A DNA stretch of 64,000 nucleotides, from assembly GCF_004102045.2 (NCBI RefSeq), contig NZ_CP029684.2:1240001-1304000 (forward strand), in the 5' to 3' direction. The position numbers were made by a program, and so were the translations under genes. Below are positions 51,563 through 55,950 of the stretch, piece by piece (the stretch's first letter is position 1; each line of letters begins with the position of its first letter). The notes below the pieces were generated by a model. That model was not told the origin of the DNA. It saw only the letters and a program-made list of their open reading frames with translations, and made no database searches. The DNA is from Oenococcus sicerae. Its GTDB lineage: Bacteria > Bacillota > Bacilli > Lactobacillales > Lactobacillaceae.

Positions 51563-51646
51563 GCCCCGATGGCGGAATTGGCAGACGCGCAGCGTTCAGG
51601 TCGCTGTGAGAGCAATCTCGTGCAGGTTCGACTCCTGTTCGGGGCA
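51563..51646 (+). tRNA. tRNA-Leu (anticodon CAG), phage attachment site
   Basis: 84-nt tRNA: acceptor GCCCCGA/TCGGGGC, D-arm, anticodon loop TTCAGGT with CAG at 51597-51599, long variable arm, T-arm AGGTTCGACTCCT. Its 3' side directly precedes a phage integrase on the opposite strand, so the 3' end of this gene is the presumed attL. Oenophages are known to use this tRNA. Confidence 0.95.
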
Positions 51647-51785: not shown

Positions 51786-52829
51786 CTACAAATTGTTTAG
51801 TTTTTTCATAGCCTTGCTTTCTTCAGACAATCGTTTATTTGCTAACAAATGTGCATAAACAGATTCAGTAATTGCCACATTAGCATGGCCTAAGCGTTCA
51901 CTTACATATTGAATCGAGATATCATCGGCCAATAATAGACTTGCATGGCTATGACGCAAGGCATGGAAAGTGACCTGTTTGATTTTTAATCGCTGCAGTA
52001 ATAGTCTTAACGCTTTGTTTGCTGCATTGTTACTAATTTCAAATAAACGCTCGCCATCGTGCTGATAACTTCGATATTGCTCCCACCAGCTGTCTGGCAT
52101 TGAGATAGTTCGTATTGAACTTTTGTTTTTTGTTTCTTTATCTTGGCCGGTAATTTCATCTACTGATTTGTTAATTGAAATTGTTCGCTTTACAGGGTCG
52201 ATGTCGCTATCAATCAAAGCTCTCAGCTCGCTAAAACGTCCTCCACTCAATAGGGCGGTTGTAATAAGAAAATTCGTTAGGGACAACCTTTTTGACGTTT
52301 CTGACAGTATTTTGATGATGCTGGCCTTTTCTAAAAACTTTAAGTCAGGATCTTTGGATGGCCTAGTGTAAAAAATATTCAGTCGTTGCGTTGGATCTTC
52401 TTTGATTAAATGATCGGCATAGGCATCACGCAATGCACCTGCAATTTGTACTTTTCGTTTCGCCACCGTTTCCTTTGATCGATTTTGACCGAACTTATTT
52501 AAAAATGTTTGAAAATCTTTTCTAGTGAAATCGACAAGTGTTGCTGCTGGCATAAATTTCTTAATGTCATTTAACGTATTTTGATACTGCAAAATGGTTT
52601 TATTGGCTTTATCAGCCTTATATGTTTTAAACCAGCTTTCAAAGTAATCCGACAATAAACGATCGCTTGACGCAGTCGCTGATAGGCTAGTATTTTCAAT
52701 TTCAGATGCCCATTTTTTGGCATCTTTTTTTAGTGCAAAGCCTGATTTTGTTTTACGCTTACGCAGACCATCTTGATAAAACGAAACATTAGCAGTCCAG
52801 GTTTTACCACGCTGATAAAAACTCGTCAT
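51786..52829 (-). CDS. int: Phage tyrosine integrase
   Basis: 347-residue site-specific recombinase. N-terminal AP2-like arm-binding domain (TSFYQRGKTWTANVSFYQDG), core-binding domain, then catalytic residues: Arg in GGRFSELRAL near 220, HALRHSHASLL near 292, His/Trp-like position in RLGHANVAITESVY with the nucleophile Tyr near 327. AAGGAGC ribosome site. Position 140 bases from tRNA-Leu and pointing to it fits attachment at the tRNA. Confidence 0.95.
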   Translation of the reverse strand: MTSFYQRGKTWTANVSFYQDGLRKRKTKSGFALKKDAKKWASEIENTSLSATASSDRLLSDYFESWFKTYKADKANKTILQYQNTLNDIKKFMPAATLVDFTRKDFQTFLNKFGQNRSKETVAKRKVQIAGALRDAYADHLIKEDPTQRLNIFYTRPSKDPDLKFLEKASIIKILSETSKRLSLTNFLITTALLSGGRFSELRALIDSDIDPVKRTISINKSVDEITGQDKETKNKSSIRTISMPDSWWEQYRSYQHDGERLFEISNNAANKALRLLLQRLKIKQVTFHALRHSHASLLLADDISIQYVSERLGHANVAITESVYAHLLANKRLSEESKAMKKLNNL

Positions 52830-52844
52830 ATTTGCTCCTTATGA

Positions 52845-53084
52845 TTAATCCAGCTGTATTAAAAATAACCATGACCCGATAAACCAAGCAACATCTTTTC
52901 CAAATACTTGGGCTAGTTTTTTCAGACTTGACAGTCTTGGAAGTATTTTGCCTTTTCGCCAGGCATAAAATGTTGCGGGAACAATGCCGATTTTTTTAAT
53001 AATGTCAGCCATCTTAAGATCTGATTCCTGCAAGGCCTTGTTTAATTGAGAGGTGAAATGTTTTACTCTTTGGTTGTCGTTCAT
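52845..53084 (-). CDS. Small helix-turn-helix phage protein
   Basis: 79 residues with an XRE-like helix-turn-helix (MADIIKKIGIVPATFYAWRKGKILPRLSSLKKLAQVFG) and a short hydrophobic tail. Candidate excisionase or accessory repressor; 15 bases upstream of int and likely co-transcribed. AAGGAGCC precedes the ATG. A GCCAC/GTGGC hairpin (53102-53117) lies just upstream. Confidence 0.7.
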   Translation of the reverse strand: MNDNQRVKHFTSQLNKALQESDLKMADIIKKIGIVPATFYAWRKGKILPRLSSLKKLAQVFGKDVAWFIGSWLFLIQLD

Positions 53085-53125
53085 ATTGGCTCCTTATGTA
53101 CGCCACGGTAGGGTGGCTAATATAG

Positions 53126-53380
53126 CTATTTCAGAATTTTATTGTCTGGATCGACTAAATGATCTGAATCTGATTTGCTGATTTTATTCGTCTTCTTTTT
53201 CTTGTTGTAAAAGTAATACCAAACACCTAAAGCAATAATTGCAAAAAGCCACCAGAATTTGATTAAGAACAAAATTGCAAATAATAAAATTAATCCAACT
53301 AGAATAAATGGAAGAGCTTTGTTAAACCACTTAAAGGCTGACCATATTAAAAATATTGAAATGATAATGAATGCTGCCAT
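53126..53380 (-). CDS. Small two-helix membrane protein of prophage
   Basis: 84 residues: two hydrophobic helices (about 1-30 region and 24-58, aromatic-rich WWLFAIIALGVWYYFY) then a lysine-rich cytosolic tail (NKKKKTNKISKSD). No family recognised. Starts one base after the stop of the channel-like gene, so the two are almost surely co-translated. Confidence 0.65.
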   Translation of the reverse strand: MAAFIIISIFLIWSAFKWFNKALPFILVGLILLFAILFLIKFWWLFAIIALGVWYYFYNKKKKTNKISKSDSDHLVDPDNKILK

Positions 53381-53381
53381 A

Positions 53382-54026
53382 TTATTCTTCTTTCTTTGAC
53401 GTTTTTATTTGATTGATTTCATCTAGTACCTTGTTTAGCTTTTTGTCAATATCGGCATTCGAAATATCATCTTTAGTGAGCCAGCTGGCCAATGCCCCAG
53501 TGAAGTAGCCAACTAAGCCAATCCCGGTAAACATTAGAATAATATTGACAATTTTAGTCACCATTTTCGTGGCTGTAAAAGGTGATCCGCTGGTCGTTGC
53601 AACGCCTAAAGCCCATAACAAACCGTCTAGGAAGTTATCTCTTTGATAAAAAGCGAAGAGCAAACCTGAAATAATTAGAATAATGCCAGTGATAATAAAG
53701 GCAATATAGACTTTTGTTTCGATGAGAAAATCTTTGGTTTTATGTAGAAAACGTCCTGAAAAGGCGAACACCCGGACTATTCGTAAAATTCTGAATGCTG
53801 GGAATGCATTAAACGGAATGATTGAGATCAGTTCGATGATATGGTGCTTGACATAGCTTTTTTTATTTTTGGCTAGTTTGAATTCAAAGAAATAGTCAAA
53901 AACAAAAATGATCCAAATACCCCAGTCGACGAACATAAGTGGTGCTTTGGATGTGTCCATGAAGGCAAGCGGAATAGAGACAGCAGCAAGCAAATATAAA
54001 AAGATATTTAAGAGTTTCGTTTTCAT
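53382..54026 (-). CDS. Voltage-gated K+ channel-like protein with altered selectivity filter
   Basis: 214 residues from ATG 54026 with six hydrophobic segments. S4-like helix has Arg every third position (FRILRIVRVF, residues about 85-94). Pore region WALGVATTSGSPFTAT aligns with canonical TTVGYGD but reads TTSGSPF, then an S6-like helix (GIGLVGYFTGALASWL) and a short coiled tail. Homology to VIC channels is clear; potassium selectivity is doubtful. In-frame GTG 54056, part of a 20-bp repeat, would add MQRHVNPPKK. Lies in the lysogeny block, so it may act in lysogens. Confidence 0.8.
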   Translation of the reverse strand: MKTKLLNIFLYLLAAVSIPLAFMDTSKAPLMFVDWGIWIIFVFDYFFEFKLAKNKKSYVKHHIIELISIIPFNAFPAFRILRIVRVFAFSGRFLHKTKDFLIETKVYIAFIITGIILIISGLLFAFYQRDNFLDGLLWALGVATTSGSPFTATKMVTKIVNIILMFTGIGLVGYFTGALASWLTKDDISNADIDKKLNKVLDEINQIKTSKKEE

Positions 54027-54036
54027 TTTCTTTGGC

Positions 54037-54056
54037 GGATTAACGTGGCGCTGCAC
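54037..54056 (-). repeat. 20-bp 5' element, copy 1
   Basis: GTGCAGCGCCACGTTAATCC on the minus strand, 10 bases before the channel gene ATG. Same element with one change stands before the SHOCT gene. Confidence 0.85.
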
Positions 54057-54092
54057 GTGCTGTGTATACTTACTACATAAAACAACCGATGA

Positions 54093-54911
54093 CTATAACC
54101 CAAGCAACTGTTTCTTTTTTGTATCAAAATCGGCTTGAGTAATAATGCCGTCGTCCAAAAGCATTTTTAATTCTCTTAGATTATCTACTTGATTATTAGG
54201 CTGCACAGTTTTCTCAACCGTTGAATCAGACACAATACTATTAATTTTGTTTACCAAGAAATTAAGTTGTTTTTCTGATTCTCTATATGTAAATGAATCT
54301 GTTTTTGTTTCAGTTGAAATATATGAGATATGCTGAGTTGAATTATCTCTGAAAAAAATATCCAATGATAGTTCATTGATCACGCTGAATTTCTTTCCAC
54401 CTGTTACTGCGCCGACAATAGCACCCGCTCCACCAAGCAAAGCTCCGCCAACTAACGCTCTTGTGATACCATGATGCTTTTTCTGTTCTGACCCATGAAC
54501 AATCGGTTTGCAACCTGTTAAATCAGTGTATTGATAAATCTTATAGACTCGATTAAATAAACTTTTTTTGAGTAATATTTCTTTTTGCGAATCGCTAAAA
54601 ATCAAGTTTCCAGCCACAACAGAACTATTGTTGTTAAACTCTTTTAAGATTGATTCGTAGCGAATCAGATCAGCTTCCTTATCTTTCTTTTTCTCATCTT
54701 TGATATTTTGAAAAAAACTTAATCCAACGGTGTTAATTTGTTCTTTCACATCTGCTGATGACATTTTCGAGGCTTGCTCGACGGCAGATATCGAGAATGT
54801 ACTCAAGCCAAGTTTTTTACCACAATGTGAACACATTAAACCATCTGTAAGCTTAAAACGAGAATCGATTAATCCTATTGCATTACCACAAATAGCACAG
54901 TTCTTTGCCAT
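54093..54911 (-). CDS. Zinc-ribbon (DUF4428-like) and SHOCT-domain phage protein
   Basis: 272 residues from ATG 54911 (GGGGAG upstream). N-terminal zinc ribbon with CAIC and CSHC pairs (residues 4-30), a middle segment, a glycine-zipper stretch (GALLGGAGAIVGAVTGG, about 150-167), a beta-rich region and a C-terminal SHOCT domain (LKMLLDDGIITQADFDTKKKQLL). Such proteins occur in prophages and may bind membranes or other proteins; function unknown. Upstream in-frame GTG 54944 belongs to the repeated 20-bp element. Leftward with the channel genes. Confidence 0.75.
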   Translation of the reverse strand: MAKNCAICGNAIGLIDSRFKLTDGLMCSHCGKKLGLSTFSISAVEQASKMSSADVKEQINTVGLSFFQNIKDEKKKDKEADLIRYESILKEFNNNSSVVAGNLIFSDSQKEILLKKSLFNRVYKIYQYTDLTGCKPIVHGSEQKKHHGITRALVGGALLGGAGAIVGAVTGGKKFSVINELSLDIFFRDNSTQHISYISTETKTDSFTYRESEKQLNFLVNKINSIVSDSTVEKTVQPNNQVDNLRELKMLLDDGIITQADFDTKKKQLLGL

Positions 54912-54924
54912 TATTTTTCTCCCC

Positions 54925-54944
54925 GGATTAACGTGGCGTTGCAC
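54925..54944 (-). repeat. 20-bp 5' element, copy 2
   Basis: GTGCAACGCCACGTTAATCC on the minus strand, 13 bases before the SHOCT gene ATG; 19 of 20 bases match copy 1. Confidence 0.85.
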
Positions 54945-54952
54945 ATTATTAA

Positions 54953-55597
54953 TTAAAGTCCATCAATACTGTATAAGTATTTACCAACAATGATTACGGT
55001 AGGATCATCATCTTCAATTTGATCCATTGAATACTCGAACGGCTGAAAATCACGTAAATAACTATCCGGCTCAAACCGAATATGGTCGTCATATTTAAAA
55101 ACGTGTTTTAGGGTTCCCTTGTAGCCATTAATAATAACTGCCAGAATATCGCCGTTAACATACTCATCGGTTTTATTGATAATAGCGATAGCGCCATTAT
55201 GAACAACTTTATTCATAGATTCTCCGTCAATCCTTAAGGCCATGAGATTATCAATTCCATAGCGACTTATAATCTGAGGATCAATGGCAACTTTTCCATC
55301 AATATCCTGTTCAACACCATCTGGGGCTCCGGCAAAAATTCTTCCAAGGACCGGTAAATTTTGAGATGCATTTTCAATTTGAACGGAATTTTCAATTTCA
55401 TCATCGCCATTTAATTCAGATAATTTGATATTGAATATATTAGATATTCTGATTGCAGCATCCATACGAGGTTTAGATCTGCCTTGTTCCCAAGACGCCA
55501 CTGTGGGGCCGGCTTGATTGATTAATTTCCCAAATTGGGCTTGAGTTAGATGCTTACTATCACGTAGCTTTCTTATGTTTAACGCCATTTTGTTCAT
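54953..55597 (-). CDS. CI-like phage repressor with S24 peptidase domain
   Basis: 214-residue LexA/CI-type repressor. XRE helix-turn-helix at residues about 5-60 (KLRDSKHLTQAQFGKLINQAGPTVASWEQG), linker, then S24 domain: Ala-Gly cleavage site in RIFAGAPDG, nucleophile Ser in DGESMNK, Lys in GTLKHVF. It maintains lysogeny and should be cleaved after RecA activation, linking induction to SOS. ATG 55597 has no ribosome site but follows TATGAT by six bases; the earlier TTG 55603 is unlikely. Confidence 0.93.
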   Translation of the reverse strand: MNKMALNIRKLRDSKHLTQAQFGKLINQAGPTVASWEQGRSKPRMDAAIRISNIFNIKLSELNGDDEIENSVQIENASQNLPVLGRIFAGAPDGVEQDIDGKVAIDPQIISRYGIDNLMALRIDGESMNKVVHNGAIAIINKTDEYVNGDILAVIINGYKGTLKHVFKYDDHIRFEPDSYLRDFQPFEYSMDQIEDDDPTVIIVGKYLYSIDGL

Positions 55598-55601
55598 AGA
55601 C

Positions 55602-55623
55602 AAATCATAGGCTCTTATGATTT
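55602..55623. promoter_or_regulatory. Operator O1 at the cI promoter
   Basis: Arms AAATCATA (55602-55609) and TATGATTT (55616-55623) around six bases. The left arm contains the leftward -10 TATGAT (55609-55604) of cI; a -35 TTTACT lies 17 bases further. CI or Cro bound here would control cI. Confidence 0.75.
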
Positions 55624-55669: not shown

Positions 55670-55709
55670 TTGCATTTACATCATATTTAAACTATGATTT
55701 AATCATAGT
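55670..55709 (+). promoter_or_regulatory. Early rightward promoter with operator O2
   Basis: TTGCAT (55670-55675), 17-base spacer, TATGAT (55693-55698). The -10 is inside CTATGATTTAATCATAG (55692-55708), so repressor binding would shut the early promoter. Confidence 0.85.
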
Positions 55710-55725
55710 AAGGAAGGAGATGATT

Positions 55726-55950
55726 ATGATTTCAAACACAGCTTTATTCACCATAAAAGGTGCTAGATCAAGGGCCGGGAAGACTAAATCTGAAATATCT
55801 AAAGAGCTGGGGATTAGCCGTCCGACCTACGATAGCTATGAAAGCTACGCTGTTCCGATGAGATTTGATGTTGGAGAGCGTTTTGCAAAAGCGACCGGAA
55901 TTTCTATTAATTCTATTTTATTTTGGACAAATACTATGAATAAATCATAG
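55726..55950 (+). CDS. Cro-like repressor
   Basis: 74-residue helix-turn-helix protein (KTKSEISKELGISRPTYDSYE), divergent from cI. Two in-frame ATGs exist; 55726 is preferred because GGAAGGAG (55712-55719) sits six bases before it and touches the first. The last codons overlap a third operator-like site. Confidence 0.85.
   Translation: MISNTALFTIKGARSRAGKTKSEISKELGISRPTYDSYESYAVPMRFDVGERFAKATGISINSILFWTNTMNKS
55934..55950. promoter_or_regulatory. Operator-like site O3 at the end of cro
   Basis: CTATGAATAAATCATAG matches O2 at 15 of 17 positions and covers the cro stop codon. Confidence 0.6.

What the first reader, a model, noticed from the sequence alone, without database searches (positions are those of the whole stretch)
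52845..54944. Prophage lysogeny block carries a membrane/channel module of unknown purpose
Between int and cI, leftward, are a DUF4428/SHOCT protein, a six-helix channel-like protein and a two-helix membrane protein with near-zero gaps. In Gram-positive temperate phages this slot usually holds superinfection-exclusion or host-fitness genes expressed in lysogens. A set of channel, small membrane protein and zinc-ribbon/SHOCT sensor could be a depolarising defence unit. The genes are seen; the role is inference.
Basis: partly seen in the sequence, partly recalled or inferred. Interest (0 to 1): 0.68.

Follow-up and report, generated by a model that had tools for sequence, protein, structure and literature searches.

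The report
Prophage cargo slot with divergent channel
A prophage of a cider bacterium carries, between its repressor and integrase genes, swappable cargo genes including an ion-channel-like membrane protein that has lost the potassium-channel signature; similar channel genes recur in this slot in other prophages, but what they do for the cell is untested.

Summary
The genes are real. The window is an Oenococcus sicerae prophage already described in print (PMC9867325), where the channel is ORF4, a 'putative K+ channel'. Four genes, not three, lie between int and cI: PH-like/DUF4428/SHOCT, a six-helix channel homologue, a two-helix protein (TM2) and a missed HTH gene. Only channel and TM2 abut (1 nt).

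Against a 'depolarising sensor-channel unit': Oenococcus channels read TTSGSP[FY] where nearly all relatives read TTVGYGD, and S4 is shortened. The parts also occur apart: SHOCT without channel in O. oeni prophages, channel without SHOCT in an O. kitaharae remnant and the O. oeni chromosome. One other phage contig (L102) carries all three.

In favour of a meaningful slot: at least 17 of 32 phage channel clusters have it between cI/ImmA and int, and the channel is under purifying selection.

New here: a ~31-nt leader, seen only in Oenococcus, precedes at least six unrelated cargo families in this slot and occurs twice in this prophage, before SHOCT and before the channel. I read the region as an interchangeable lysogeny cargo slot; superinfection exclusion or lysogen fitness is inference.

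The parts
51631..51646 (+). attL core ACTCCTGTTCGGGGCA in the 3' end of tRNA-Leu(CAG); second copy at genome C1:1336993-1337008
   Evidence: same sequence given as att site in PMC9867325
51786..52829 (-). tyrosine integrase
   Evidence: PF00589 E 4e-15, phrog_1 E 6e-63
52845..53084 (-).
   Evidence: PF13443 E 5e-6; about 79% DNA identity to fOgPSU1/L165 across gene and flanks
53126..53380 (-). TM2, 84-aa two-helix membrane protein (ORF3 by position)
   Evidence: leave-one-out profile E 6.5e-9, best composition shuffle 0.5
53382..54026 (-). six-helix channel homologue, 214 aa, filter TTSGSPF, shortened S4 (ORF4 of PMC9867325)
   Evidence: PF07885, alignment A6, model pLDDT 82, pore matches NaK/KcsA/KvLm at Z about 12
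54036..54056 (-). leader copy 2, upstream of the channel
54093..54911 (-). DUF4428 + PH-like core + SHOCT protein (phrog_888)
   Evidence: PH-like fold of residues 86-240, Z 8.6, rmsd 2.5 over 89 residues
54924..54944 (-). leader copy 1, upstream of the SHOCT gene
54953..55603 (-). cI-like repressor, HTH + peptidase S24
   Evidence: PF00717 E 6e-16
53107..54088 (-). approximate 980-bp stretch with channel + TM2 that is extra relative to O. oeni prophages in which SHOCT is followed directly by the HTH gene
   Evidence: blastn against L165 and L043: SHOCT homology ends at 54089, HTH homology resumes at 53106

Best explanation
The int-cI interval is an interchangeable lysogeny cargo slot, read leftward behind cI and so probably expressed in the lysogen. 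In Oenococcus prophages a short common leader (inverted repeat, invariant TTAATCCG, ribosome-binding site) marks the 5' edge of cargo genes and gives unrelated genes a common junction at which they can be exchanged. Here two leader-headed units lie in tandem: leader-SHOCT (a PH-like protein with a zinc-ribbon-type end and a glycine-rich segment) and leader-channel-TM2. Channel and TM2 probably make one membrane complex that adds a permeability pathway, or a membrane-embedded regulator, to the lysogen. Its most likely use is a change of the inner membrane that blocks or aborts entry of a second phage; lysogen fitness is the close rival. Shown: gene content, order, recurrence of the slot, recurrence of the leader, filter and S4 divergence, purifying selection. 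Inferred: expression, complex formation, conduction, exclusion, exchange at the leader.
For: At least 17 of 32 channel clusters from viral contigs have cI/ImmA upstream and int downstream on the same strand; 9 more have one of the two. The channel is followed within a few nt by a two-helix protein in the window, L102, L114/L116/L118 and, with weaker homology, the L073 cluster; leave-one-out E: window 6.5e-9, O. oeni 1.8e-7, L102 8e-6, L114 2e-3, L073 0.03. Leader: 15 invariant columns in 17 copies, before SHOCT/PH-like, membrane-SHOCT, phrog_33222, channel, TM2-like, zinc-ribbon and phrog_17572 genes; found in 1 of 40 genera among 301 family genomes. O. oeni relatives lack the channel+TM2 stretch. 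Channel dN 0.053 vs dS 1.73 (NG86) between O. sicerae and O. kitaharae. No minus-strand terminator-like site between the cI and int genes.
Against: No expression or plaque data. PADLOC finds no known defence protein apart from weak HTH and spurious matches. A 70%-identical channel with the same kind of filter is a chromosomal gene in O. oeni between mannose-PTS and pepC genes, which fits a cellular role. Nothing shows directly that recombination happens at the leader; a shared regulatory site would also be conserved. dS is near saturation, so the dN/dS ratio is rough.
Confidence: 0.5

Rival explanations
1. Lysogen-fitness moron: the channel is a host-type membrane protein carried by the phage that helps the lysogen with cation balance or acid/ethanol stress, with no role against phages.
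For: O. oeni keeps a chromosomal homologue with the same unusual filter; O. sicerae has no other copy in its genome and its thrS-pepC locus has none; strong purifying selection.
Against: The slot position and the shared leader tie it to phage cargo rather than to a metabolic gene; the chromosomal O. oeni copy lacks the leader.
Confidence: 0.3
2. One reading: SHOCT/zinc-ribbon sensor, channel and TM2 are one depolarising defence unit.
For: All three occur adjacent in a second phage, L102; some phage channels carry a SHOCT tail themselves (L065, L069, PLE2).
Against: The parts occur separately in most phages; the phrog_888-like gene of L102 lacks both DUF4428 and SHOCT; filter and S4 of the Oenococcus channel are degenerate.
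Confidence: 0.12
3. Anti-CRISPR locus: HTH (ORF2) and TM2 (ORF3) are Acr proteins that protect the self-targeted prophage, as predicted with AcrDB in PMC9867325.
For: Type I-E spacers in this strain match the prophage, one of them in int (the spacer sequence is readable at window 52082-52113).
Against: HTH79 and TM2 homologues are found in O. oeni prophages, a species without CRISPR-Cas; TM2 is a two-helix membrane protein that follows channel or SHOCT genes; assignment of an HTH protein to AcrIIA1, which itself has an HTH domain (from memory), is weak evidence.
Confidence: 0.06

Closest known systems
Kv-type / KvLm-like bacterial potassium channels (Lmo2059, PDB 4h33; KvAP 1orq)
   Same: Six-helix layout, pore helix and S6; pore domain aligns to NaK, KcsA and KvLm at Z about 12; best sequence match in the PDB is Lmo2059, E 3.5e-5
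   Different: TTSGSPF instead of TTVGYGD; S4 region shorter by about 9-19 residues with three regularly spaced arginines
Prophage 'ion transporter' genes of PLE2 (L. casei), JNU_P5 (L. fermentum), Efs 1-1-1 (E. faecalis)
   Same: Same family (phrog_7872), 25-30% identity; in PLE2 and Efs 1-1-1 the same slot between cI/ImmA and a recombinase gene
   Different: They keep TTVGYGD; PLE2's has a SHOCT tail; no TM2 homologue was detected in their lineages
phrog_888 / phiadh DUF4428-SHOCT proteins; SHOCT proteins of oenophage OE33PA
   Same: Same family and slot
   Different: Here headed by the Oenococcus leader and followed by a second leader-headed unit
PdpSau (S. aureus prophage abortive-infection membrane protein, PMC10127798)
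   Same: Prophage-encoded membrane-anchored protein; membrane potential and permeability change on infection
   Different: No homology tested or claimed; it sits in the lysis module, not the int-cI slot
Short conserved boundary sequences at phage module joints (discussed in PMC3029335)
   Same: Short conserved DNA at the edge of exchangeable genes
   Different: Carries an inverted repeat and a ribosome-binding site and marks single cargo genes in one slot; exchange itself not shown

Membership tests
Voltage-gated K+ channel (Kv) | Two-helix pore domain of the Ion_trans_2 fold behind a four-helix domain | tested here: met
   PF07885 at cut-off, AlphaFold model, Foldseek and VIA-align hits to Kv, KcsA, NaK
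Voltage-gated K+ channel (Kv) | K+ selectivity signature T-V-G-Y-G | tested here: not met
   TTSGSPF in window and O. kitaharae, TTSGSPY in O. oeni; the other relatives with a readable filter have TT[VI]GYGD except L135/L136 (LFGYEG)
Voltage-gated K+ channel (Kv) | Full-length S4 with regularly spaced basic residues | tested here: inconclusive
   Three regularly spaced arginines; alignment gap of about 9-19 residues relative to phage relatives; model pLDDT only 62-74 there
Voltage-gated K+ channel (Kv) | Conducts K+ as a tetramer | not testable with these tools
   needs electrophysiology or a flux assay
phrog_888 DUF4428-SHOCT phage protein | DUF4428 + conserved core with KKHGITRA..GG motif + SHOCT tail | tested here: met
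   phrog_888 E 1.9e-57 over the full length; PF14471 and PF09851 above cut-off
Superinfection-exclusion system | Gene in the lysogeny region, on the cI strand | tested here: met
Superinfection-exclusion system | Sequence relation to a known exclusion or defence protein | tested here: inconclusive
   PADLOC none for channel and TM2; TM2 to phrog_8545 'Sie-like' only E 0.06
Superinfection-exclusion system | Lowers plating or DNA entry of another phage | not testable with these tools
   needs plaque and DNA-entry assays
Fixed three-gene defence unit | Genes co-occur as a set across prophages | tested here: not met
   All three in the window and L102 only; otherwise separate
Module boundary sequence | Short sequence shared between otherwise unrelated neighbours at a module edge | tested here: met
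   17 copies before at least six unrelated families
Module boundary sequence | Recombination happens there | tested here: inconclusive
   Two copies in tandem here and in L162, and the missing channel+TM2 in O. oeni, fit it; no junction caught in the act
Anti-CRISPR (ORF2/ORF3 in PMC9867325) | Inhibits the strain's type I-E system | not testable with these tools
   only an indirect argument: homologues are found in prophages of CRISPR-less O. oeni

The most novel reading that the evidence does not exclude
Oenococcus prophages use a dedicated ~31-nt leader as a plug-in site for lysogeny cargo, and one cargo is a new class of phage-borne membrane protein: a channel fold with a non-K+ filter and a two-helix partner, used to alter the lysogen's membrane against other phages. 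More widely, Kv-like channels are a common, unrecognised class of lysogeny-slot genes in prophages of lactic acid bacteria, enterococci and their relatives.
Probability: 0.25. Interest if true: 0.75.

Novelty: new variant of a known kind. Interest (0 to 1): 0.5.

Why it matters
If Kv-like channels are repeatedly placed next to the repressor of temperate phages, control of membrane potential or ion flow may be a general lysogen trait that has gone unnoticed because the genes are annotated only as 'ion transporter'. The published 'K+ channel' label for this gene is probably wrong as to selectivity. The leader gives a simple sequence handle to list the cargo genes of oenophage lysogeny modules, in bacteria that matter to wine and cider making.

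Tried and rejected
Leader as translated peptide (MQRHVNP): rejected, the leader precedes unrelated genes and the GTG is out of frame in L165. Leader as a stable RNA hairpin: the same 5-bp stem is the predicted fold in five copies but is no more stable than shuffles, and the right arm plus TTAATCCG is conserved beyond the stem, so a DNA or primary-sequence role is as likely. Rfam: no relevant match. Promoter scan: number of hits equals chance. Genome-contig scan with the Oenococcus channel alignment found only O. oeni DSM 20252, so close relatives are confined to Oenococcus in that collection as far as this scan reaches. The tree puts the three Oenococcus channels on one very long branch (2.68) with full support, so origin from phage or from host cannot be resolved. 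Megablast of the slot against phage records: no match. Literature searches for prophage potassium channels with superinfection exclusion and for SHOCT with superinfection: no papers held. TM2 in the L073 cluster: not significant in the leave-one-out test (E 0.03), so not counted as shown.

Full report
What is there. The window lies in a 1.66-Mb Oenococcus genome. The prophage sits in the 3' end of tRNA-Leu(CAG); the 16-bp att sequence ACTCCTGTTCGGGGCA occurs exactly twice in the genome, 45,362 bp apart. This is the 45.3-kb, mitomycin-responsive prophage of O. [quoted passage not shown] The finding is therefore partly already known.

Gene content. Leftward behind cI (54953-55603): SHOCT gene 54093-54911, channel 53382-54026, TM2 53126-53380, HTH gene 52845-53084, int 51786-52829. 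Only channel and TM2 abut. No minus-strand terminator-like site lies between the cI and int genes, and promoter-like hits are at chance level.

The channel. Pfam places it barely above the Ion_trans_2 cut-off, while all 26 aligned relatives match that family. The model (pLDDT 82) is Kv-like; its pore domain matches NaK, KcsA and KvLm (Z about 12; Foldseek lists Kv channels). The selectivity filter reads TTSGSPF. The O. kitaharae copy (89% identical) has the same, the O. oeni chromosomal copy (70%) TTSGSPY, whereas the other Lactobacillaceae and phage relatives with a readable filter carry TT[VI]GYGD, except L135/L136. S4 is shortened against the phage relatives. Between O. sicerae and O. kitaharae the gene is 80% identical in DNA with dN 0.053 and dS 1.73, so the unusual form is maintained; dS is near saturation and the ratio is only rough. 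The three Oenococcus sequences form one long, fully supported branch. I conclude, by inference, that canonical K+ selectivity is unlikely; whether it conducts at all is unknown.

The slot in other phages. A scan of viral contigs with a family alignment gave 76 loci in 32 clusters. In 17 clusters the channel lies between cI/ImmA and int on one strand; 9 more show one of the two marks (the marker search used few seeds, so these are lower bounds). PLE2 and Efs 1-1-1 show the same arrangement in phage records. Two-helix proteins follow the channel within a few nucleotides in L102, L114/L116/L118 and the L073 cluster; homology to the window TM2 is clear for L102 and for O. oeni proteins, marginal for L114 and not significant for L073. 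One phage contig, L102, has channel, TM2 and a phrog_888-like gene in a row. Some phage channels carry a SHOCT tail themselves, and SHOCT joined to an ion-channel domain was noted in PMC3581485.

The parts are exchangeable. In O. oeni prophages L165/L188 and in fOgPSU1, SHOCT is followed directly by the HTH gene and int; the homology breaks at window 54089 and resumes at 53106, so about 980 bp with channel and TM2 are extra here. In L047, L049, L215 and L219 the order is leader, SHOCT, TM2, int. In O. kitaharae the channel lies behind a broken cI and a DUF4041/T5orf172 gene and before an HTH gene, in what looks like a prophage remnant, contrary to the remark in PMC9867325 that those regions are not assumed mobile. 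In O. oeni DSM 20252 the channel is chromosomal. That G001 is O. kitaharae rests on the 89% identity and the Cas9 gene reported there in the literature and seen in L057, not on a named record.

The leader. A 21-nt repeat stands before both the SHOCT and the channel gene, not expected by chance (0 in 100 shuffles). Related copies, 15 invariant columns in 17, precede SHOCT/PH-like, membrane-SHOCT, phrog_33222, zinc-ribbon, phrog_17572 and TM2-like genes. In most of the prophages read here the first copy follows cI or ImmA (in L167 one small gene lies between); a second copy further down is seen in the window and in L162. Among 301 family genomes it was found in Oenococcus only. It contains ACGTG-N6-CACGT, then TTAATCCG, then usually a ribosome-binding site. 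Whether it serves regulation, recombination or both is open.

The SHOCT protein. The core (86-240) is predicted PH-like with a glycine-rich low-confidence insert (146-171); DUF4428 lies at the N end and SHOCT at the C end. The function of SHOCT is unknown, and one published test did not support oligomerisation.

Judgement. The best-supported claim is architectural: a cargo slot with leader-headed, exchangeable genes. The function is inference.

Noticed in passing
window 54924-54944 and 54036-54056; L047, L049, L056, L057, L060, L162, L164, L165, L167, L206, L213, L215-L217, L219: A leader seen only in Oenococcus (ACGTGCNNCGYCACGTTAATCCGTTTGGRAG) precedes unrelated cargo genes in prophage lysogeny modules.
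   Followed up: partly
L135, L136: Two phage channel homologues have LFGYEG in place of TTVGYGD: a second case of an altered filter.
   Followed up: no
L003 (PLE2), L065, L069: Phage channels with a SHOCT tail fused to their C end.
   Followed up: partly
L057:7485-10807 (G001, probably O. kitaharae): Prophage remnant: broken cI, DUF4041/T5orf172 gene, channel, HTH gene, then a leader copy and a phrog_17572 gene; a Cas9-like gene starts about 5 kb further on.
   Followed up: partly
L060:6455-6640 (G001): A leader followed by a remnant that matches only the SHOCT tail of the window protein, upstream of an integrase gene.
   Followed up: no
window 52082-52113: Match, inside int, to the O. sicerae type I-E self-targeting spacer STSOSI36 printed in PMC9867325.
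   Followed up: no
window 55692-55710 and 55932-55950: Inverted-repeat pair CTATGATTTAATCATAG-like around the cI/cro region, candidate repressor operators.
   Followed up: no
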